NCBI GenBank assembly: GCA_028736075.1
Contig: CP117875.1
Coordinates: 2,728,001 to 2,792,000 of the forward strand
Length of the DNA: 64,000 nucleotides
Origin: Chryseobacterium sp. KACC 21268
GTDB lineage: Bacteria > Bacteroidota > Bacteroidia > Flavobacteriales > Weeksellaceae
Direction of reading: 5' to 3'
Position 1 is the stretch's first letter. The number at the start of each line of letters is the position of its first letter. Of the stretch, positions 53,341 through 64,000 are shown one piece after another. The translations under genes were made by a program, and so were the position numbers. The notes beneath the pieces are model-generated. The model saw only the letters and a list, made by a program, of their open reading frames with translations. It ran no database searches and was not told the origin of the DNA.

Positions 53341-53481
53341 CTATTTGCTTTTTTGATTAGGGTTTTGTTGCTTTCCTCTATTCCCTTGGTTCTGGGCGTA
53401 CTGTCTGTTGGTTCCAGAAGTTCCTTTGTTAGGGTTTTGGATATTAGCCTGGTTCTGTGTTGGTGTGATTTTGTTTTTCAT
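53341..53481 (-). CDS. small Asn/Gln-rich basic protein (46 residues)
   Basis: Reverse-strand ORF of 46 codons, starting MKNKITPTQNQANIQNPNKG and continuing with TSGTNRQYAQNQGNRGKQ. The N/Q-rich, NPNKGTSGTN and GNRGKQ style matches short Chryseobacterium/Flavobacterium proteins I recall as hypothetical; I cannot verify this. A terminator (53311-53328) follows on the minus strand. A plus-strand ORF that overlaps it (53221-53493) has an unusual composition and is judged a shadow. Function unknown. Confidence 0.65.
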   Translation of the reverse strand: MKNKITPTQNQANIQNPNKGTSGTNRQYAQNQGNRGKQQNPNQKSK

Positions 53482-53650: not shown

Positions 53651-53857
53651 TCAATCATAATCACCCGAATCTCCGAAAGGTTCATATGCATCATCCCAAT
53701 AATCATCGGAATTATCATAATTGGAATTGTTAGAATTTGAATCATTGTTATCCCAATCATCTGGCCTTTCATCCAGACCTCTTGATTGCCAATAAGAATC
53801 ATGGTTTGGATTTAATTGATTTGAATGATTGTCTAAATCAGATTTTGAATTACTCAT
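53651..53857 (-). CDS. small Asp/Asn-rich acidic protein
   Basis: 68 residues, strongly acidic: MSNSKSDLDNHSNQLNPNHD, then YWQSRGLDERPDDWDNND and a Ser/Asn/Asp-rich tail. YWQSRGLDERPDDW looks like a conserved short motif of Bacteroidota hypothetical proteins, which supports a real gene despite low complexity. It lies 170 bp upstream of the N/Q-rich gene on the same strand. Possibly intrinsically disordered. Confidence 0.65.
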   Translation of the reverse strand: MSNSKSDLDNHSNQLNPNHDSYWQSRGLDERPDDWDNNDSNSNNSNYDNSDDYWDDAYEPFGDSGDYD

Positions 53858-53969
53858 TGTTTTGAATTGTTTTTTTAATTACCTACTCTATCTGCTTTTC
53901 GGATTCCGCATTTTAATTTGTCGACATTAAGAATCCATCAAACTCAAATCCAAAAATCAAAAAAAATAC

Positions 53970-53994
53970 GCTTCCGAAAACAACATCGGAAGCG
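53970..53994 (-). terminator. terminator of the LytTR gene and restriction operon
   Basis: Nine-bp perfect stem (CGCTTCCGA / TCGGAAGCG) with a 7-nt loop, followed on the minus strand by TATTTTTTTT. Confidence 0.85.
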
Positions 53995-54030
53995 CAGGAA
54001 CAAAAGCTTTTTATGGAGCACCAAAAGCGG

Positions 54031-54780
54031 TTAGCCAAAAGTTTTTCGGATGACAGGTTGGTAGTTTTCTGCCACTTTTATCAAGTCAGATTTCGTTTTG
54101 CCATGCCCGTCAAAAATGCTCACCTCTATCTTTCCAGTTTTGGGGTCGTAGCATTTGATATGTTTCTTGTTCACACGAAAAGATTTATGGACCGTAATAA
54201 ACTGGGACTTCAGCAGGCCACTCTCTTCCATTCTGGTAAATGAAAAATCTATCAGACTGGCAGCTGCCCTGTTGATGAAATAGATTTGCTTGTTGTTTGA
54301 CTCATTTTTGTTGGCACAGAGATACACGATATCATCGATAAGAATTCTGTTCTTCTTTTTGTTGAAGTCCAAAGACACATATTGTGGGGGCGAAAAGAAG
54401 TTGACCTCCTGCAAAAATCTTTTAAAACTCTTTACAAACTGATCTTCTTTGTACGGCTTTGTGATATGATCAACACAGATCTCGGCATCCCGTTTCAGAT
54501 TTTCGATATCTTCAATATAATCTGCAGTGTTCACGCTGGCAAAGAAGACCGGAATCTTGACTTCCTGAGCTACTTCCATGCCTGTCATGCTATCATTGCC
54601 CAGGTCCAGATCTGCTACCAATATCTCGGGATTCAAAGCTTTGACCTCATCAAAAAAATAATCAGAACTTTTGCTTTTCAGCACAATCTCCACGTTGGGA
54701 AGCTGATTGAGGTACGACTCCAATTTTTCGAGTTGCCGACTATTATCTTCTAGAAGGGCGATGCGGTAGGTGTGGGTCAT
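54031..54780 (-). CDS. LytTR-family response regulator coupled to mcrC
   Basis: Two-component response regulator of 249 residues. The receiver domain (1-120) has acidic pocket LLEDNSRQ, phospho-acceptor D57 (ILVADLDLGNDSMTGME) and the conserved lysine in HITKPYKEDQ. The C-terminal LytTR domain (about 130-245: VSLDFNKKKNRILIDDIVYL, FITVHKSFRVNKKHI) binds DNA. The ATG overlaps the mcrC stop by 4 bp (ATGA), so translation is coupled to the restriction genes. No sensor kinase is visible nearby. It may tune the operon or connect it to stress; function inferred. Confidence 0.88.
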   Translation of the reverse strand: MTHTYRIALLEDNSRQLEKLESYLNQLPNVEIVLKSKSSDYFFDEVKALNPEILVADLDLGNDSMTGMEVAQEVKIPVFFASVNTADYIEDIENLKRDAEICVDHITKPYKEDQFVKSFKRFLQEVNFFSPPQYVSLDFNKKKNRILIDDIVYLCANKNESNNKQIYFINRAAASLIDFSFTRMEESGLLKSQFITVHKSFRVNKKHIKCYDPKTGKIEVSIFDGHGKTKSDLIKVAENYQPVIRKTFG

Positions 54781-56021
54781 AGTTTAATTTCATTAAATAA
54801 ATTCAATATCTTTTCACCAAGTAATTTATCCAATTCTTCTTCGTCATTAAATATCGAAATTTTACCGAGTGAACATGAGTGATCTTTATTATCATAAGCA
54901 ATAAAATCCTCATTTCTTAGCATAGTTTCTTGCGAAGGATATAATAATAATGCTTTTGTTGATCCCCAATAGTCATTATAAACATACATTTGTCTTAAAT
55001 CATGCGTTGATGGTCTTGATTGGTCAATATTCTTCCATTTAGTATCTACAACTAAAACTTTACTTTTTTCACCATTAATTCTTTTTTCCAAAACAATATC
55101 TGGACGAATGGTGATACCATCCCAAAAGCCAGTTGAATTTTGGCCATACACTTGGACATCTTTATCTTGGCAAACTTGTTTCAATCTTACCAAAACATAT
55201 TCTTCCCATAGACTGTTCATATCAAAAAGCAAAGCCAGCATCTTTTCGGAACCGCTGGAAACATTGGGTGCATAATTAAGAATAATTAGTCTGGCGATGG
55301 CTAAAGCATTCTCATAGGGTGCGGTCTTTCTTGACTTTGGAATTTTCGAAAATGTATTTTCGTTGGCTTTGATGGGTTTCACCTCAGGAAAATCGAGTTG
55401 TACCTTTTTACACCTGCTGTAGAGGTAACTTCCTTTCGATAACGTAGCAATAATTTCCAAAGCCTGTCCCAAAACCTGGTGTATCAAGTGGTCTTTGTCA
55501 TAAACTTGATGCGTGGTGTAGAATCTCTCTTTGTGAACAAGATTCTTCTGAATGTGACCTGCAAATTCAAGCTTGCCTTTCAGTGCTTTTACGTTTCCGG
55601 TTTCTTTGTAATATTGTTTGATCAATCCTTGATGAATTAATAATTGAACCTCTTTCAAAAACCATTCAAAATAAATATCTAATAAATGGATGGATTGTTT
55701 TGTTACGTTTGCCTGACCAACCTGCTGAATGTTCAGTTTTTTGGTGACACGCAACATTTCTATCAGAACTTTCTGCCACTTTGTTTTATTTCCTTCACTT
55801 TCACTTTCATAACGGTCTATCTTTGGGAGAATTTCTATCGTAAGGTTATCCACTTGAATGACTCCTACAAATTGCTTGAATACTACTCCATTGTGTTTTA
55901 AATCAAAATATTGATAATTGTGTAAAACATTGAGTTTCGATAAAGCCACAAAATGACGTTGCTCAAACTTGCCTTTTTCAATAGGCAAAAAGCTGTGTTC
56001 GAAAACTTGAATCCTACTCAT
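54777..56021 (-). CDS. mcrC: McrC-family restriction nuclease subunit
   Basis: Nuclease partner of the McrB-like motor, 414 residues. The N-terminal region (RIQVFEHSFLPIEKG to EILPKIDRYESESE) is the McrC DUF2357-type domain. The C-terminal PD-(D/E)xK core is visible: GITIRPDIVLEK with D308, and VLVVDTKWKNID with D326-x-K328. VYNDYWGSTKALLLYPSQ completes it. It starts one base inside the mcrB stop codon (TAATG) and its own stop overlaps the LytTR gene. With McrB it should cleave modified DNA, but the base modification recognised is unknown. Confidence 0.9.
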   Translation of the reverse strand: MSRIQVFEHSFLPIEKGKFEQRHFVALSKLNVLHNYQYFDLKHNGVVFKQFVGVIQVDNLTIEILPKIDRYESESEGNKTKWQKVLIEMLRVTKKLNIQQVGQANVTKQSIHLLDIYFEWFLKEVQLLIHQGLIKQYYKETGNVKALKGKLEFAGHIQKNLVHKERFYTTHQVYDKDHLIHQVLGQALEIIATLSKGSYLYSRCKKVQLDFPEVKPIKANENTFSKIPKSRKTAPYENALAIARLIILNYAPNVSSGSEKMLALLFDMNSLWEEYVLVRLKQVCQDKDVQVYGQNSTGFWDGITIRPDIVLEKRINGEKSKVLVVDTKWKNIDQSRPSTHDLRQMYVYNDYWGSTKALLLYPSQETMLRNEDFIAYDNKDHSCSLGKISIFNDEEELDKLLGEKILNLFNEIKL

Positions 56022-58903
56022 TAATTATTAACCTCTATTTTCAGAAGAACTTTTAAAGCTTCGATGATATTAAAACCATCATCAATAACTTTTAAACGAA
56101 TCATACTGCCACTTTCTGGATAATTCTGTGAGGGGAAACTCGCGAAAACATCTTTGTTATATTTCTCAGGAACATCAAAAAACTTTTCTCCTAAAATCAT
56201 TCCTATTTTCTCGTAATCTCCGTAGAAATATTCTTGCAACAACGGGATGATATTATTCTTAAAAGTATTTCTGAGATCTTGCTCTGTTTTTACATCAATG
56301 AAGTAAGAATGACCGATGGTATGGTCTCTGTCCAGCAATATTTCAACTCTTTTATTAATTGTTGATAATAATTTTTTCAGTTCTATTCCTTCGATAATTT
56401 TATCGTTAAGAACTTCAAGATTGGGTAACATTTCTTCAAAACAAAAACGTCTTCTCAATGCGGTATCAAGAGATTCTACGCTTCTATCTGCGGTGTTCAT
56501 TGTACCGATAATATAGAGATTGGAAGGAACGCCAAATTTATCTTTGCTGTAAGGTAGTTCAACTATAATCTCATCCTTACCGAGCCTTTTTGTATCTTCA
56601 ATAACAGTGATTAACTCTCCAAATATTTGGGAAATGTTACCTCGATTAATTTCATCAATGAATAAACCGTAAGGACAAGCATTCTCAAACTTAACTACTC
56701 TTTCCTCTTTAGTGTAATTTTCAATGGAATCTTTCAAGCTCAAAAATCCAGCAAGCTTTGCTGCCTCATTACAACACTCATAGAAAATTCCTTTTTCAAT
56801 AGTGTAACTTACTTCAGAAGATTCATCGTTTAATTCCTTATCCAATGTAGGTTTAATTCCTTCAATAAAATCTTCATAAGAAAAAGATTGATGGAAAGTA
56901 ATGAATTTGTAGTTTTTAGAGGTAACAACTTTTTCCTTATAATTTCTAATCTTTTGTGATAATTCTAGTAGCTCATCAATTAGTTCTTTTTTGTCATCAA
57001 CAATTTCCCAAACAGAACCAGTTGATTTGTTGAAAATCAGGGGTTCAGTTCTTTTATTATATTGAACAGTAGCTGAGTCTTCAATTGTGTGTGCAGATAA
57101 TTGTCCCCAAACTGTTTGGCTTAAGCTTTTAGTATTTGAAACTTGCAGTTTATAATCTACAAACCTATGTTTCTTAATATCCGGTACCGTTGAACTTTTA
57201 TTTTCAAGAAGTATGAGAGCAAATACTTGCCACCAACTAAGTTTATTAATAATTTCAAATTCAAACTCTTGTTTACTTACAGTTTTATTTTGAACTTCGA
57301 AATGAGTGTAATACTCATTCAGTAATTTGTGGGTCTTCCCTGTTCCTGGAGGTCCGTAAAGTATTTTATTTAATGGTATAATTATATTATCATTTTCTAC
57401 GTAAGAAGTAGATTTTTCAAAGTATTCGCGTAAAAACCGTAAGTAATTTTTTTTACCTAATATTGCTTCCTTGCCTCCACTGCCAACTTTGCCATAATAG
57501 GAAGAAAATGAGGATTTTTTTTCTTTTAGATTGTTGGCTATTATAGTAATTTGATATTCAATGTTATTACCATTGAAAGTGAATAATTCAGTATCAAAAC
57601 TACTTCTGTAGAAGTTTTCGTATTCTAAAAATTCAGCTGTAATTACACTTTTGTCAGATTTAAAATTTTTTGAAAAATAGTTGTTTTCTTCTCCGTCCCT
57701 TTTAATAAACCAATCAATAAAGTTTTCTTTTACATTTATTGAATATAAACTTCTGACCATAGTGCCTAATATCTCATCAAATTTAAACAAACCACTTTCC
57801 AGCTTTTTCAGAATTTCATTGTCGTTGAAATCTATGTTTTCTTTCAGTGCTAAACTTAGTTCACCACCTTTATGATCTGAATTCCAAAAAAAATCTTCAT
57901 CTAAGCTGTTGATTAATATTTTTTTTGCTTTTGTCTTCCACTTCTTATCAAAATGTAACTCAATCCAAATCTTTTGAGGATATTCTTTTCTCGTAATCAA
58001 TTCATAATGGCAGAAACCACTTTTACCTATAATTCTTACATTATCGGAAATCCAAACATAATGATCATGGACTTTCTGAATCTCAAAATTATTTATTAGG
58101 CAGTTACTGTTTAGAATATATTGTTTGAAATCTTCTGTAATTTCACGAAAATTTTTATTTGTATCCAACTTATTTATATGTTTTTCTAAAAGAATATTAT
58201 ACTCCTTTAGATTTATTACTTTTTCTTTAAGATATTTAGCTGTTGAATATTTTTCTAATGACTGATAATTATCAATATTGCTAATAAGTTTTTCAGCAAT
58301 AACACTGAAATAAGATCCGAATTGGGTATTCCTATTTTCATCAGGAAAAGTTCGAAACAACCTACATAAAGTATCATAATCATCATTTTGGTGTAAAACT
58401 TCTTTATTTATTTGCTTCCAAAACTTATAATATACTGGGTAATTCTGTGGATCTTGACAGTTTTTAATTACTGAAAATAAGTGAGGAATAAAAGATTGTA
58501 GATTTTTATTCAATGTAAAATCAAAACTAATTAGAGAATCACTTAATTTGATATAATTAAATAATTCATAAAGTTCTAAGTAACTATTGTTTTGCAGTTT
58601 TTTCCCATCTTTGAAATTATTAATTCTGTCTGCAACATTAACAATTGAGTTAATTTTTGATACAAAAATTGATAAAATTCTTTTATGTGATTCAGTAAAA
58701 CTTTCATTAGATTTTAAAACATTTATAACCTCACTTATAATTCTTTGATCTTTATCATCTAATTTGTATAATTTATCCTCAATTGGAACTAGCCAATTCA
58801 AATTTATCTCACTATTAAATCTTGTTCGATATTCATCAGGATACAATTCTTTCAATTTATCAAATGAAATATTATGTATTTCTAAATATTCTTGTATTTT
58901 CAT
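56021..58903 (-). CDS. McrB-like AAA+ motor of the McrBC system, long N-terminus
   Basis: A 960-residue protein. The AAA+ domain is at the C-terminus: Walker A GPPGTGKT at 517-524, Walker B FIDEINRGN with D750-E751, and MNTADRS at 802-808, the McrB hallmark. An insert after Walker A (about 540-690) carries WWQVFALILLENKS and SLSQTVWGQLSAHT, as in other McrB-like proteins. The 500-residue N-terminal region is not recognised; IWIELHFDKKWKTKAKKI could belong to a DNA-binding or nuclease-like fold. The ATG overlaps the hsdR stop by 4 bp. The DNA is distinctly more AT-rich than hsdR. Confidence 0.88.
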   Translation of the reverse strand: MKIQEYLEIHNISFDKLKELYPDEYRTRFNSEINLNWLVPIEDKLYKLDDKDQRIISEVINVLKSNESFTESHKRILSIFVSKINSIVNVADRINNFKDGKKLQNNSYLELYELFNYIKLSDSLISFDFTLNKNLQSFIPHLFSVIKNCQDPQNYPVYYKFWKQINKEVLHQNDDYDTLCRLFRTFPDENRNTQFGSYFSVIAEKLISNIDNYQSLEKYSTAKYLKEKVINLKEYNILLEKHINKLDTNKNFREITEDFKQYILNSNCLINNFEIQKVHDHYVWISDNVRIIGKSGFCHYELITRKEYPQKIWIELHFDKKWKTKAKKILINSLDEDFFWNSDHKGGELSLALKENIDFNDNEILKKLESGLFKFDEILGTMVRSLYSINVKENFIDWFIKRDGEENNYFSKNFKSDKSVITAEFLEYENFYRSSFDTELFTFNGNNIEYQITIIANNLKEKKSSFSSYYGKVGSGGKEAILGKKNYLRFLREYFEKSTSYVENDNIIIPLNKILYGPPGTGKTHKLLNEYYTHFEVQNKTVSKQEFEFEIINKLSWWQVFALILLENKSSTVPDIKKHRFVDYKLQVSNTKSLSQTVWGQLSAHTIEDSATVQYNKRTEPLIFNKSTGSVWEIVDDKKELIDELLELSQKIRNYKEKVVTSKNYKFITFHQSFSYEDFIEGIKPTLDKELNDESSEVSYTIEKGIFYECCNEAAKLAGFLSLKDSIENYTKEERVVKFENACPYGLFIDEINRGNISQIFGELITVIEDTKRLGKDEIIVELPYSKDKFGVPSNLYIIGTMNTADRSVESLDTALRRRFCFEEMLPNLEVLNDKIIEGIELKKLLSTINKRVEILLDRDHTIGHSYFIDVKTEQDLRNTFKNNIIPLLQEYFYGDYEKIGMILGEKFFDVPEKYNKDVFASFPSQNYPESGSMIRLKVIDDGFNIIEALKVLLKIEVNN

Positions 58904-61900
58904 AACCTATTCCTCTTAAAATTCTCCGCCTGCTCCAGCACATTTTTATAAACCTCATCCTGCGTAATCGGCGGATACCCAAACTGATGCAGCTTTACAA
59001 TAATCTCCATTTTCAATTGCGCTTTAATGTCATCTCTATCACTCCAGTCGGGAAATTTAGCGGTATCATCTACAATCTTTTTGATTTCTCGGGCAAGCTC
59101 CAGCATTTTGTCTTTGTCGAATTCAAACCCATATTGTTTGCAGACCATATCGAGAATATCGTAGAAAGCTTTCTCTTCATAGTTGATTCCCAGATCTTCA
59201 AACGAAGCCATTTCGGTACGCAGCTTTAAGATCAGGTCGAGAATCTGTTCCGAAGTATCAGCTTGGATGCCGTCGTAATCCAACAGGTCAGCTTCACTTC
59301 GCTCGTTGTAGCTGTTGATGATTTTCTGTAGTCTTTCAGAGAACTCGATGCCTTTTACTTTGTTTACTTTTTTGAAGTCAGAGATGGCCTGTTTTAAAAG
59401 GCGCTCAAGGATTTTTATCTTGGTATTAGGCAATTCAAGGTCATTGATTTTCTCAAGAAACTTATCGTTAAACAAATCAATTGCATTGGCCTTATTGTCA
59501 TCCAGTTTAAAGATTTCTTCCACGCCTTCCGAGATAATGGCATCTTCTACCATCTTGCTCACTTTCGCATTCATCTGTGCAGTATCTGGAACTTCGCCTT
59601 TGGTCAGCTTGACCACAATTGATTTAATGGCAAAATAAAAATGAATCTCATCGGTTTCTTTGTCATTAAAGATTTCCGAACCGCAAGTGAGATTGTAGGC
59701 AGCCTTTAGTTTTTTGGTCACATCTACAAAGAACTTTTCCGACTTTTCTGTGAGCAAAACCAATTCAGAGGCACGGTTCAGACAATGCAACTGTTCAACA
59801 GGCGAACCTTTGAAATAGTCGGTGGTATCAAACTGATAGAAAAACTGTCGCAGTAAATCCAACTGATCTCTCACGATAATCACCGCTTTGTCAAGATCTT
59901 CAAAATCATCGGCTGCAGTGGTATTGTTGAATAAGCCCAAAGCGTGATTCAGGTTTTTCTTGATGCCGATGTAATCGACCACCAGACCTTTATCCTTGCC
60001 TTCAAACTTTCTGTTCACACGGGAAATCGTCTGTATCAGATTATGCTTTTGCAAGGGTTTATCAATATAAATCGTATCCAAAAACGGAACATCAAAACCT
60101 GTGAGCCACATATCGACCACGATGGCTATTTTGAAATTGGAATGGATCTGTTTAAACTGCCGGTCCAATTCTTTTCGGTCTTCTTTGTTGCCGAGCAGAT
60201 TCCACAAACTTTCTTCGTCATCTTTGTTTCTGGTCATTACCATTTTAATGCGCTCGATGGGTTTGATTTCTTTCTGCTCTTTTTCGCTAAGGTTTTCCGC
60301 AATACTTTTTTCACTCCATTCTGGTCTTAGCCTGATGATTTCTTTATAAAGTTTATAGGCAATCTCACGCGAGGCACAAACGAACATTACCTTTCCGGCA
60401 ACGGTTGCTTTCTCCTCGATTCGCTTTTCATAATGCGTAATGAAATCCTGCGCAATCGCTTCGATTCTTCCAGGGTCACCCAAAATCACTTCCATTCTTG
60501 CAATGGCTTTCTGGCTGGCTTCCACGTGGTATTCCGAAGCGCCTTCTGCTACAGCGTTTTGATAATACTGTTCAATTTCAACCACTTTTATATGGTTAAG
60601 ATTAACCTTTGCAGCACGTCCTTCATACACCAGTCGAACCGTGATTTCATCCACCACAGATTCAAACATCGTGTAGGAATCTACCACAGGACCAAATACA
60701 TCCAGAGTTTTATCGATAGGCGTTCCCGTAAATCCTACATACGTCGCATTCGGAAGAGAATCGTGAAGATATTTTGCAAAACCATACGATTTTTTAACTC
60801 CATCTTCATCAATGCGGACTTTCAAATCAAGATTGACCTGCGAGCGGTGGGCTTCGTCGGAGATACAGATAATATTGGTACGGTCACTTAAAATCTCACT
60901 ATCCTCTGCAAATTTCTGAACGGTCGTCAGAAAAACACCGCCACTTTCTCTGCCCCGCAATCTTGATCTAAGATCGGCTCTGGATTCTATATTCACAATA
61001 TTTTCGTCCCCAATGAAATCTTTTGCATTAGTAAAATCTCTCGACAGCTGATCATCCAGATCGGTACGGTCGGAGATAATAATGATGGTCGGACTTGCCA
61101 ATTGCGTGGAACGCATCAACAGTCTCGACAGGTAAAGCATTGTATAACTTTTCCCGCAACCTGTCGCTCCGAAGTAGGTTCCGCCTTTCCCATCGCCTTC
61201 CGGTTTGCGGTGTTTCTGGATATTGTCAAACAGTTTGTTGGCAGCATAATACTGCGGATAACGGCACAGGATTTTTTCTTCTTTTTTAGACGTATCTGGA
61301 AACAGGATAAAGTGATGCAGAATATCACAAAGCCTCTGCTTGTTCAGCATTCCGTGGACAATGGAAGTTACGGTATGGATTCCCGTTAAGGTTTTTTTTT
61401 CTTCGCCCGTTATTTTGTGCCAACCGTAGAAGAAATCGTAAGGCGCAAACAGAGAACCTGCTTTGTTGTTCACGCCGTCGCTGATGATGCAGAACGCATT
61501 GTATTTCATCAGTTCCGGAATATCTCTTCGGTAGCGTAAACTCAGTTGTTTGTAAGCATCGTGAATGGTAACCCCTTCTTCTATCGTTGTTTTAAACTCA
61601 AATACCACCACCGGAATCCCATTGATGTACAGAATCAAATCCGGAATCCGTAGTTCTTTTCCCTGAATCTCCAGCTGGTTTACAATCTTAAACCGATTGG
61701 TTTTCAAAAGACTGCTTTCATCAATATCGATATAACGGATGTGCAAATCTTTCTTAGAAGGATTGTTTCTCTTAAAAATGAGACCGTCTGCCAAGAGTTT
61801 GCCAATGTATTTATTACTGTCGTAAAGATTGGAGGCAGGTTGATACGCCAGTTCATTGATTAGGGTTTCCAGCTCTATCGTTTCCAAATCGGGGTAGCGA

Positions 61901-62046
61901 GACAGCAAAAAATCACTCAAATCTTCCCGAATTAAAACCTCCTGATGCGATGCCCGAACTACGCCTTTGCCATTCACGTACTCATAGCCTTCCTCTTTCA
62001 GAAGATGGATGAATGATTTTTCTAGTTGGGATTCGGTGTATTTCAT
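58900..62046 (-). CDS. hsdR: type I restriction enzyme, R (HsdR) subunit
   Basis: Motor/nuclease subunit of a type I restriction system, 1048 residues from ATG 62046 (a TTG at 62067 would overlap the upstream gene). The N-terminal nuclease has D136 in RIPDLILY and E150-x-K152 in VFEFKT. Helicase motif I is GATGCGKS (293-300), motif II SDEAHRS with D397-H400, and motif III GFTGTPID; NRKFEGKDKGLVVDY is in the second RecA domain. The long helical C-terminus should bind HsdM. HsdM and HsdS are not in view and may lie past the right edge. A run of nine As occurs in codons for EEKKT at about 61392-61400. Confidence 0.92.
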   Translation of the reverse strand: MKYTESQLEKSFIHLLKEEGYEYVNGKGVVRASHQEVLIREDLSDFLLSRYPDLETIELETLINELAYQPASNLYDSNKYIGKLLADGLIFKRNNPSKKDLHIRYIDIDESSLLKTNRFKIVNQLEIQGKELRIPDLILYINGIPVVVFEFKTTIEEGVTIHDAYKQLSLRYRRDIPELMKYNAFCIISDGVNNKAGSLFAPYDFFYGWHKITGEEKKTLTGIHTVTSIVHGMLNKQRLCDILHHFILFPDTSKKEEKILCRYPQYYAANKLFDNIQKHRKPEGDGKGGTYFGATGCGKSYTMLYLSRLLMRSTQLASPTIIIISDRTDLDDQLSRDFTNAKDFIGDENIVNIESRADLRSRLRGRESGGVFLTTVQKFAEDSEILSDRTNIICISDEAHRSQVNLDLKVRIDEDGVKKSYGFAKYLHDSLPNATYVGFTGTPIDKTLDVFGPVVDSYTMFESVVDEITVRLVYEGRAAKVNLNHIKVVEIEQYYQNAVAEGASEYHVEASQKAIARMEVILGDPGRIEAIAQDFITHYEKRIEEKATVAGKVMFVCASREIAYKLYKEIIRLRPEWSEKSIAENLSEKEQKEIKPIERIKMVMTRNKDDEESLWNLLGNKEDRKELDRQFKQIHSNFKIAIVVDMWLTGFDVPFLDTIYIDKPLQKHNLIQTISRVNRKFEGKDKGLVVDYIGIKKNLNHALGLFNNTTAADDFEDLDKAVIIVRDQLDLLRQFFYQFDTTDYFKGSPVEQLHCLNRASELVLLTEKSEKFFVDVTKKLKAAYNLTCGSEIFNDKETDEIHFYFAIKSIVVKLTKGEVPDTAQMNAKVSKMVEDAIISEGVEEIFKLDDNKANAIDLFNDKFLEKINDLELPNTKIKILERLLKQAISDFKKVNKVKGIEFSERLQKIINSYNERSEADLLDYDGIQADTSEQILDLILKLRTEMASFEDLGINYEEKAFYDILDMVCKQYGFEFDKDKMLELAREIKKIVDDTAKFPDWSDRDDIKAQLKMEIIVKLHQFGYPPITQDEVYKNVLEQAENFKRNRL

Positions 62047-62054
62047 TTTTATTT

Positions 62055-63764
62055 TTATATCGTCCAAACTTTTTCTGCTATATTATAAAGGTCTTTTGCT
62101 CGTAAATTTATAGCGTTCTCATCCCAAATACTTAATATCAAGTACTTGTTCATTGTTTCAAGACCTGACGCATAGTCCTCTAACCCTTTTTTATCACCTT
62201 TTCCTTCTTTTTTTGTTTGCCAATCCGAATCCCGGATTGACGAATTTAAAGACTGCGTGATGATAGTTAAGTTACCTAGTGTCAACAATTTTCTACTCCT
62301 TTTGATGGTATCATCTTGGGTTGGTAATGTTCCCCAGTTTTTAGACCAATTCTTAGGCATTAGGTGCTCTAAACTGTATTTGTTAATTCCTAACAAAGCT
62401 GTAGAATGCAGATGAGATTTTCGATGTTTAGATTCTAATAAATATAAAATTCCAGCAGACTGTTTATTGATTAAAATTGATTTATTAAAGCCTTCCAAAA
62501 CTTCTTGATTTGTCGGAATAAACGTAGATGTATCTGTACTTTTTTCAATAAATTCTTTAATAGCTTGAACAGTCAGAATCTTGTTACCTATGAATCTTTC
62601 CGTAAATAATTGATTATAATTTTTATTCATTGTATGTGCAACCATCCTTCTCATTATGTATGACTCTAGGAACTGGAATATATTATCTTGTTCTACGGTA
62701 TTTGTTACATTTTTTAAAACATAGAGTACATATGAAATCAATGTGCTATTATCTAGTCCGAAAATTATAGCATTTAATCTTTCTATATGGTTGCTTGAAG
62801 ATATCTCTCTATTGATGATTTCGTAATCAAAGTTTTTTGCAAATATTTCTGCATACTCCTTAATTTCATCTAGTAATGTATTATTGTTTCCATCGAGATA
62901 ATTTTTTATGAAGTCTTTATATGATTCAAACAGATGTTCACCACGAGCATAAGCAATTTTATCTTCAGTTTTTACACCGAAACTTTTGTCTTGTATCTTA
63001 ATTTGAAGGAATGCATCAAAAAATAAATCTATAAATGTTCTCTTAACGCGACCAGCTGTTATCTCGCGATCCCAATATTTTTTGACATCTTCATCCTTTT
63101 CAAAAAGATTTTTCCAGTACTTTTCGTATAGTTTAATATCACGGTTGAAAAAATAGTTTTTCAACAACTCAGCAGTTGTCAATGTTACCCCTAAAGAATT
63201 AATCGTATCAAATATTTGTTGCTCATCTTCATTTGGATCTAAGTCGATTCCAACAAATAATATATTGGCAAGTATTTTTTGAAAATCTAAATTATCAACA
63301 TTGATTGATTTTTTAAAGTAACCATAACATTTGGTTATGTTATCTTCTCCAGGCAAATCAACTAAATCAATTACAGACAAAACCTCGGTAAACTTATCTA
63401 TATCATTATGACTGTGTGATAAAGCCAGTTCATCGGTCATTAATCTGAAAGTCCTATCAAACATTGCGTTTTTACCACTTTTCAAACAGAGAACTTTAAA
63501 AAAAATATTTAATGTTGTTAGCCTTTGTTGACCATCAATTAAGGTTCGAATATCCCCAACTTTACTTGCTGACGAGGTTGGTTGCTGTTTAAGAATTACA
63601 GAACCTAAAAAATAAGGTTTGTTCGTTTTTGAAACTGCTTCCATATCTTCTAAAAGTCTCTCCCATTGTTTTTCACCCCAAACGTAAGCTCTCTGAAAAA
63701 AGGGAATTTCTAAAATACGGTTACCGTTAAAAATATCATTAATTGTTTTTTTTGATGCGTCCAT
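62055..63764 (-). CDS. GmrSD-like DUF262/DUF1524 protein
   Basis: A 569-residue protein of the GmrSD family, which in E. coli and phage-defence islands cuts modified (glucosylated) DNA. The N-terminal DUF262 domain (DGQQ-type nucleotide hydrolase) has IPFFQRAYVW (about 20-29) and D77GQQR81 followed by LTTL. Mid-region helices link to the DUF1524 C-terminus with EHLMPKNWSKNW (H467, HNH-like) and TLGNLTIITQSLNSSIRDSD. It ends 8 bp before hsdR and starts 19 bp after the truncated gene. AT-rich like mcrB. Embedded in the type I operon, it may act as a second barrier against modified phage DNA. Confidence 0.87.
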   Translation of the reverse strand: MDASKKTINDIFNGNRILEIPFFQRAYVWGEKQWERLLEDMEAVSKTNKPYFLGSVILKQQPTSSASKVGDIRTLIDGQQRLTTLNIFFKVLCLKSGKNAMFDRTFRLMTDELALSHSHNDIDKFTEVLSVIDLVDLPGEDNITKCYGYFKKSINVDNLDFQKILANILFVGIDLDPNEDEQQIFDTINSLGVTLTTAELLKNYFFNRDIKLYEKYWKNLFEKDEDVKKYWDREITAGRVKRTFIDLFFDAFLQIKIQDKSFGVKTEDKIAYARGEHLFESYKDFIKNYLDGNNNTLLDEIKEYAEIFAKNFDYEIINREISSSNHIERLNAIIFGLDNSTLISYVLYVLKNVTNTVEQDNIFQFLESYIMRRMVAHTMNKNYNQLFTERFIGNKILTVQAIKEFIEKSTDTSTFIPTNQEVLEGFNKSILINKQSAGILYLLESKHRKSHLHSTALLGINKYSLEHLMPKNWSKNWGTLPTQDDTIKRSRKLLTLGNLTIITQSLNSSIRDSDWQTKKEGKGDKKGLEDYASGLETMNKYLILSIWDENAINLRAKDLYNIAEKVWTI

Positions 63765-63783
63765 TTATATTATACTGTTCTAT

Positions 63784-64000
63784 TTAATAATCGAATAATA
63801 TTTTAATTTTGTCAAAGAGTGGATTAAAATCGTCAAAATCTTCTTTTGGTAAACCTCCAAATTTTTGAAATGCTTTTGATTTAATTTTATCTTTAATTTT
63901 ATAAAAAGGTCTATCCAAAATTTGATCTTCTTCCACGCAATCTAAATCTATTAATTTTTGCTGCGAAATCAAATTCTCAATCTCTACAAAACTTTGAAAT
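63784..64000 (-). CDS. C-terminal part of unknown protein, cut by window edge
   Basis: The frame stays open to position 64000, reading FQSFVEIENLISQQKLIDLD then CVEEDQILDRPFYKIKDKIK and ending FDKIKILFDY. The apparent start at 63972 is only a TTG inside the frame. The visible 72 residues are acidic and lysine-rich and match no family I can name. It is 19 bp upstream of the GmrSD-like gene, so it is the first visible member of the operon. It could be an HsdS/HsdM-adjacent gene, but there is no evidence for that. Confidence 0.55.
   Translation of the reverse strand, partial: FQSFVEIENLISQQKLIDLDCVEEDQILDRPFYKIKDKIKSKAFQKFGGLPKEDFDDFNPLFDKIKILFDY

What the first reader, a model, noticed from the sequence alone, without database searches (positions are those of the whole stretch)
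54031..64000. Composite restriction operon: GmrSD-like, HsdR, McrB, McrC and a response regulator in one transcription unit
Seen: on the minus strand the genes lie end to end with gaps of 19 and 8 bp and then overlaps of 4, 1 and 4 bp, ending in one terminator (53970-53994). Three restriction types are thus mixed: type I (HsdR), type IV GmrSD-like (DUF262/DUF1524) and type IV McrBC. Defence islands often place these side by side, but this degree of translational coupling across types is unusual. Inference: they may act as one layered system covering unmodified, glucosylated and methylated DNA.
Basis: partly seen in the sequence, partly recalled or inferred. Interest (0 to 1): 0.78.

Follow-up and report, generated by a model that had tools for sequence, protein, structure and literature searches.

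The report
Restriction operon ending in viperin-linked regulator
The stacked restriction genes are an ordinary bacterial anti-phage operon that carries extra defence genes, but its last gene belongs to a family of signal-response regulators found between restriction operons and other antiviral genes such as bacterial viperin, and it has a conserved binding-site array of its own next to it.

Summary
In the window's own genome (genus Epilithonimonas) it runs hsdM-hsdS-[OLD-like AAA ATPase]-[single-chain GmrSD-like DUF262/DUF1524]-hsdR-mcrB-mcrC-response regulator. This is a type I R-M locus with a cargo slot between hsdS and hsdR, plus an optional McrBC tail. Both arrangements are already published (RLO genes, TgvAB, Bell et al. 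2024), so that part is a new member of a known kind.

The unreported part is the last gene, a REC-LytTR response regulator (RR). It occurs in 29 of 320 Weeksellaceae genomes. Its upstream neighbour is the end of a restriction/defence operon in 24 of 28 readable cases. All 12 prokaryotic viperins (pVip) found in these genomes lie directly downstream of an RR. Directly after the RR stop codon come LytTR-type direct repeats (21-bp period, 30 of 30 loci), then (within the family) a terminator, a promoter-like block and an exchangeable gene: pVip, AAA+DUF7192, or small peptides in the window. Homology breaks exactly at both ends of this unit. I infer that the RR controls the next defence gene, not the restriction operon. 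No wet-lab data support this; nearest parallels are BrxR-type and CARF/RtcR-type regulators.

The parts
63784..64000 (-). 3' end of a 671-aa AAA_15 ATPase with C-terminal TOPRIM-like motifs (OLD-like); the gene continues to position 65799; hsdS (65814-66974), hsdM (66943-68508) and an 85-aa ORF (68570-68827) follow upstream, outside the window
   Evidence: TOPRIM motifs read by eye
62055..63764 (-). single-chain GmrSD-like protein (GmrSD_N/DUF262 + GmrSD_C/DUF1524), cargo in the hsdS-hsdR slot
   Evidence: PF03235 1.3e-34, PF07510 6.8e-15; 96-98% identical relatives before hsdR in G048, G132 and G191
58900..62046 (-). hsdR, type I restriction translocase/endonuclease
   Evidence: 94-96% identical in other genera
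56021..58903 (-). mcrB-like GTPase, C-terminal AAA+ domain; N-terminal ~490 aa of unknown specificity
54777..56021 (-). mcrC-like nuclease subunit
54031..54780 (-). REC-LytTR response regulator (defence-linked family)
53995..54027 (-). LytTR-type direct repeats: R1 CTTTTGGTGCTC (54016-54027) and R2 CTTTTGTTCCTG (53995-54006), period 21 bp
53967..53996 (-). terminator hairpin closing the restriction operon (11-bp stem, T8)
53937..53951 (-). conserved promoter-like block GGAT-TT-TTTGAT ahead of the downstream gene
   Evidence: alignment only
53651..53857 (-). 68-aa acidic small ORF (P1), first ORF after the array
53344..53481 (-). 46-aa small ORF (P2), conserved after the downstream cargo in most RR loci

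Best explanation
Two modules lie end to end. (1) A type I restriction-modification operon (hsdM-hsdS-hsdR) carries exchangeable extra defence genes: an OLD-like ATPase and a GmrSD-like enzyme between hsdS and hsdR, and an McrBC-like pair after hsdR. HsdMSR cuts DNA lacking the host's methylation pattern; the GmrSD-like and McrBC-like enzymes are expected to cut modified DNA, so that phages escaping one are met by another (inferred from homology). (2) The last gene is a LytTR response regulator co-transcribed with whichever defence operon precedes it (inferred from the close spacing). When activated, probably by phosphorylation at D57 by a kinase encoded elsewhere, it binds the 21-bp-spaced direct repeats just 3' of its own gene and drives the promoter behind the terminator, switching on a second defence gene. 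That gene is viperin in 12 relatives, AAA+DUF7192 in 4, and small peptides (P1/P2) here. Shown: anatomy, linkage, repeats, terminator, exchange breakpoints. Inferred: activation, kinase, direction of control, peptide function.
For: Operon: complete hsdMSR with cargo. The cargo slot holds known defence modules in relatives: AAA_15/OLD-like, RloC/PrrC-like, ThsB, HamB, KAP NTPase, SoFic. McrBC follows this HsdR in 10 of 28 full-length relatives and also follows unrelated hsd loci. GC mosaic: hsdR 41.5%, DUF262 31%, McrB N-terminus 25%, RR 41%. RR module: 29/320 genomes; upstream neighbour is a defence operon in 24/28 readable cases, McrC in 13; 12/12 pVips sit just downstream of an RR (genome-level hypergeometric P 2.7e-14, not corrected for relatedness). 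The 4 without upstream restriction all have pVip downstream. Control: 17/17 paralogous LytTR loci sit by a LytS-type kinase and none matched my defence-gene set. Direct repeats at a 21-bp period in 30/30 loci, and by inspection in the distant kinase-RR-pVip locus L199. Breakpoints: G000 vs G078 homology starts 9 bp before the RR start; G190 vs G191 homology ends 138 bp after the RR stop. Structure: REC + LytTR, best match full-length ComE; D57 invariant.
Against: No expression, binding or phage data. No cognate kinase lies beside the RR in Weeksellaceae. Chryseobacterium/Epilithonimonas RR loci often share one chromosomal neighbourhood (PfpI, k7, k8 genes), so part of the linkage could reflect a shared insertion hotspot. 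The viperin gene is absent from the window's genome, so the regulated gene here would be only small peptides of unknown function. The promoter block is recognised by conservation alone and its distance from the repeats is longer than in published LytTR promoters. Activation versus repression cannot be told.
Confidence: 0.68

Rival explanations
1. Hotspot resident: the RR is merely a housekeeping gene at the edge of a defence-island insertion site, so defence operons land beside it without any functional link.
For: In Epilithonimonas and Chryseobacterium the outer flanks (PfpI, k7, k8, c6) recur around the locus; G000 and G078 share both flanks but carry different hsd operons.
Against: The RR is absent from 291 of 320 family genomes, and is missing at the same site in G068, G135 and G141, which still carry RM or McrBC there. 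It occurs with defence genes in other genera, in Flavobacterium terrae and in distant kinase-RR-pVip loci. The binding-site array is kept whatever the downstream gene.
Confidence: 0.2
2. The RR regulates the restriction operon itself (autoregulation of the hsd promoter).
For: It is the last gene of the unit with a 4-bp ATGA overlap; defence-island regulators such as BrxR control their own islands (PMC9122601).
Against: A PWM scan finds no comparable array upstream of hsdM or elsewhere in the 20-kb locus. Genome-wide, the only other non-repetitive pattern match lies inside a protein-coding, asparagine-rich stretch.
Confidence: 0.08
3. Chance juxtaposition of independent defence genes in a defence island, each with its own promoter, without any joint function.
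For: GC mosaic and very variable cargo show independent origins; sigma-70-like matches are moderately above shuffles (77 vs 57), although that scan does not cover Bacteroidota promoters.
Against: Overlapping or nearly touching genes, the only strong terminator after the RR, and recurrent hsdS-cargo-hsdR-mcrBC order across genera.
Confidence: 0.1

Closest known systems
Type I R-M loci with embedded GmrSD-like genes: TgvAB of Vibrio VPI-2 (PMC11411939) and RLO/RloF genes of Campylobacter (PMC4619093, PMC5183652)
   Same: DUF262/GmrSD-family gene between hsdS and hsdR in one operon
   Different: Here the GmrSD-like protein is a single chain, an OLD-like ATPase shares the slot, McrBC follows hsdR, and a response regulator ends the unit
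E. coli K-12-type McrBC branch associated with type I R-M (Bell et al. 2024, PMC11090510)
   Same: mcrB-mcrC in line with hsd genes, same direction, potential single operon
   Different: McrB N-terminus (about 490 aa) has no recognised modified-base domain here; a regulator follows mcrC in 13 of the 29 RR genomes; branch membership was not tested by phylogeny
Prokaryotic viperin (pVip) with nucleotide kinase VakA
   Same: In 12 relatives the gene after the RR matches the pVip models, often with the VakA-like kinase
   Different: The window's genome has no pVip; the RR link was not found in the held papers
LytTR response regulators (ComE, AgrA) and LytTR Regulatory Systems (PMC6193735)
   Same: REC-LytTR fold; direct repeats about 9 bp long separated by 12 bp, i.e. 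21-bp period
   Different: Array lies 3' of the regulator gene, next to a terminator; no adjacent kinase or membrane partner in Weeksellaceae
BrxR/WYL regulators of defence islands (PMC9122601) and CARF/RtcR regulators (PMC11090510)
   Same: A regulator family that co-localises with many unrelated defence systems
   Different: Those are WYL wHTH repressors or CARF-sigma54 activators; this one is a two-component response regulator

Membership tests
Type I restriction-modification | hsdM, hsdS and hsdR all present with expected domains | tested here: met
   HSDR_N, SWI2_SNF2, N6_Mtase, HsdM_N, Methylase_S
Type I restriction-modification | sequence-specific methylation and HsdR-dependent restriction | not testable with these tools
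   needs methylome and plating data
GmrSD family type IV enzyme | DUF262 (GmrSD_N) and DUF1524 (GmrSD_C) domains | tested here: met
   both above Pfam cut-offs
GmrSD family type IV enzyme | cleavage of glucosylated hydroxymethylcytosine DNA | not testable with these tools
   specificity cannot be read from sequence
McrBC type IV system | McrB AAA+ GTPase with MNTxD-type signature and McrC with PD-(D/E)xK | tested here: met
   motifs MNTADRS and RPD...VVDTK read by eye
McrBC type IV system | known modified-base recognition domain in McrB N-terminus | tested here: inconclusive
   no Pfam hit in residues 1-490; structure model poor, pLDDT 42
LytTR response regulator | REC domain with phospho-acceptor Asp plus LytTR DNA-binding domain | tested here: met
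   (D57 invariant in 19)
LytTR response regulator | direct-repeat target sites with about 21-bp period | tested here: met
   (30/30 loci); literature spacing; binding itself not tested
Two-component system | cognate histidine kinase encoded next to the regulator | tested here: not met
   none beside the RR in Weeksellaceae; present in distant L194/L137, L195, L199
OLD-family nuclease (AAA protein) | AAA_15-type ATPase plus TOPRIM | tested here: inconclusive
   AAA_15 met; TOPRIM motifs seen by eye only; no solved relative

The most novel reading that the evidence does not exclude
A defence-linked LytTR response regulator plus its own promoter forms an exchangeable connector that sits at the 3' end of unrelated restriction operons and switches on a second-line antiviral gene (viperin, AAA+DUF7192 or small peptides), giving bacteria a two-component, staged antiviral response.
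Probability: 0.5. Interest if true: 0.8.

Novelty: new variant of a known kind. Interest (0 to 1): 0.58.

Why it matters
How bacterial defence genes are switched on is poorly known. A signal-response regulator tied to both restriction operons and bacterial viperin, with a conserved predicted binding site, makes the question 'is viperin induced, and by what?' directly testable. It also gives a sequence handle (RR plus 21-bp repeats) for finding further second-line genes, such as the AAA+DUF7192 pair. The restriction operon itself is a useful but ordinary example of cargo exchange inside type I loci.

Tried and rejected
McrB N-terminal structure (residues 1-501, 4 sequences): pLDDT 42, not used. 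RNAalifold on the aligned terminators returned no pairs, because loop lengths differ and shift the 3' arm; folding each sequence alone shows the stems. Genome-wide search for a second array in the own genome: one non-repetitive extra match inside a coding, asparagine-rich stretch, judged chance. The same degenerate pattern in 15 RR-free genomes gives counts like its reversed control, so single pattern hits mean little. PDB sequence search with the AAA/TOPRIM protein found nothing useful. A general pVip-regulator rule was tested class-wide: only 3 of 14 pVips outside the family have a kinase-RR pair upstream; 3 others have a divergent gene that looks like a sigma54/RtcR-like regulator, so the RR-pVip link is strong in Weeksellaceae but not universal. 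Literature search for a response regulator linked to viperin found none in the held library. Sigma-70 promoter scan is uninformative for Bacteroidota.

Full report
OBSERVATION. On the minus strand the genes are separated by +19, +8, -4, -1 and -4 bp, and the strongest terminator-like site in the region, 53967-53996, follows the last gene. Pfam, NCBIfam and PADLOC support the names: GmrSD_N + GmrSD_C, HsdR, McrB-like, McrC, REC + LytTR.

WHAT THE WINDOW EDGE HID. The window is G000:C1:2728001-2792000 of a 4.07-Mb, one-contig genome; named relatives place it in Epilithonimonas, family Weeksellaceae. Reading on gives a 671-aa AAA_15 ATPase with TOPRIM-like motifs at its C-terminus (motifs read by eye, not detected by Pfam), then hsdS and hsdM. 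So the unit is hsdM-hsdS-AAA/TOPRIM-DUF262-hsdR-mcrB-mcrC-RR, with an 85-aa ORF in front.

THE OPERON IS A CARGO-CARRYING TYPE I LOCUS. In the 28 full-length relatives of this HsdR (58-96% identity, the window's own included), hsdM-hsdS and hsdR keep their places where they were mapped, while the genes between them differ in nearly every genome. Cargo identified in ten proteins of relatives includes AAA_15/OLD-like, RloC/PrrC-like AAA_13, Thoeris ThsB, Hachiman HamB, KAP NTPase and SoFic. McrB-McrC follows hsdR in 10 of the 28 and also follows unrelated hsd loci in G037, G135, G141 and G124. DUF262-HsdR-McrB-McrC is found again in G132 and G191. HsdR is 94-96% identical between genera and GC content changes gene by gene, from 25% (McrB N-terminus) to 41.5% (hsdR): recent transfer and modular assembly. 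Published precedents: GmrSD homologues between hsdS and hsdR (PMC4619093), TgvAB embedded in a type I operon and active against modified phages independently of HsdR (PMC11411939), rlo/mlo genes in C. jejuni (PMC5183652), and McrBC of the K-12 branch associated with type I R-M in potential single operons (PMC11090510). This part is therefore a new member of a known kind. The motifs I checked look intact, so the enzymes are probably active; their base specificities are unknown.

THE LAST GENE IS SOMETHING ELSE. The 249-aa REC-LytTR regulator has close relatives (E<=1e-40) in 29 of 320 family genomes, the window's own included. I mapped their surroundings. Upstream neighbours: McrC (several unrelated lineages, spacing -31 to +9 bp) in 13, HsdR directly in 3, HsdR or type III Res plus one gene in 3, DUF262 in 2, a PbeA-like helicase-HNH protein in 2, and a DISARM/type IIG-like cluster in 1: 24 of 28 (one lies at a contig edge). 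The other four have pVip immediately downstream. As a control, the 17 paralogous LytTR loci fetched from the same family sit beside a LytS-type histidine kinase and none had a match to my set of defence proteins within about 1.5 kb (this set is not exhaustive).

VIPERIN. The gene after the RR in many relatives matches the pVip models of PADLOC (E 4e-124 for one copy) and is often followed by a VakA-like cytidylate kinase. Searching all 320 genomes with that pVip gave 12 hits, and all 12 lie directly 3' of an RR on the same strand, 140-152 bp away. The genome-level hypergeometric probability is 2.7e-14, uncorrected for relatedness. Outside the family 3 of 14 pVips have a kinase-RR pair upstream, so the bond is clade-wide rather than universal. 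The window's own genome has no pVip.

THE CONNECTOR. Directly after the RR stop codon all 30 compared loci have two similar 12-mers with best self-match at exactly 21 bp, usually with a weaker third: CTTTTGGTGCTC / CTTTTGTTCCTG in the window, CTTTCATTACCC / CTTTCATTACTC / CTTTCATTACTG in a distant locus. The method picked the best of 20, 21 and 22 bp; 18 of 30 loci reach 9 of 12 matches against 1.6% of shuffles. Known LytTR regulators bind 9-bp direct repeats separated by 12 bp, the same 21-bp period (PMC6193735). Then follow the terminator (compensated stems in most Weeksellaceae, absent in the distant loci), a GGAT-TT-TTTGAT block, and the next gene. The next gene is pVip (12), AAA+DUF7192 (4), or small ORFs; a conserved 45-46-aa peptide (P2) closes the unit in 17 of the loci examined. 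Breakpoints are gene-precise: G000 and G078 share sequence only from 9 bp before the RR start onward, though upstream one has McrBC and the other a different HsdR; G190 and G191 share HsdR-McrBC-RR until 138 bp after the RR stop, then one has pVip and the other AAA+DUF7192. In the RR tree G190/G191, G143/G309 and G162/G242 are well-supported sisters with different neighbours.

MECHANISM. Shown: anatomy, recurrence, array, terminator, breakpoints, a REC-LytTR model at pLDDT 90 whose best match is full-length ComE, and invariant D57. Inferred: the RR is made together with the restriction operon, is activated by a kinase encoded elsewhere, and turns on the promoter downstream of its own gene. A PWM scan of the 20-kb locus finds no second array upstream of hsdM, so control of the restriction operon itself is not indicated. 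In this genome the target would be P1/P2, whose role is unknown.

ALTERNATIVES. A shared insertion hotspot explains part of the co-location in Epilithonimonas and Chryseobacterium, where PfpI and k7/k8 genes recur on the outside. It does not explain the retained array, the 12/12 pVip link, loci in other genera and distant families, or RR absence at the same site in G068, G135 and G141. I give it 0.2.

LIMITS. All evidence is sequence-based. Gene maps come from a simple longest-ORF caller. pVip and RR counts are not corrected for relatedness. The held paper library lacks most subscription journals, so 'unreported' means not found there.

Noticed in passing
L083:483-2325, L087:14233-16079, L130:10892-12477, L169 downstream of RR; also L199 after pVip (AAA only): An AAA ATPase (MoxR-like) followed by a DUF7192 protein occupies the same downstream slot as pVip; a candidate antiviral pair without a PADLOC hit for DUF7192.
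   Followed up: partly
L198, L204, L206 (upstream of pVip, divergent): Outside the family some pVips have a divergent ~600-640 aa gene that looks by eye like a sigma54-type (RtcR-like) regulator, a different control scheme for viperin.
   Followed up: no
window 53344-53481 and 53651-53857: Two small low-complexity peptides (46 and 68 aa) after the regulator; the 46-aa one is conserved after the cargo in 17 RR loci and is nearly confined to RR-positive genomes in the genus.
   Followed up: partly
L194/L137, L195, L199: Distant Bacteroidota loci keep a His_kinase-RR-pVip order, suggesting that Weeksellaceae lost the adjacent kinase.
   Followed up: partly
L179:RR (G244) and L138:RR (G152): The regulator is broken or cut short in two genomes: an internal stop in G244 and only a partial match in G152.
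   Followed up: no
L002:16571-17533: An 85-aa ORF and a divergent HTH_17 protein at the left edge of the operon recur at the matching edge in G078; a possible boundary of the exchanged block.
   Followed up: no
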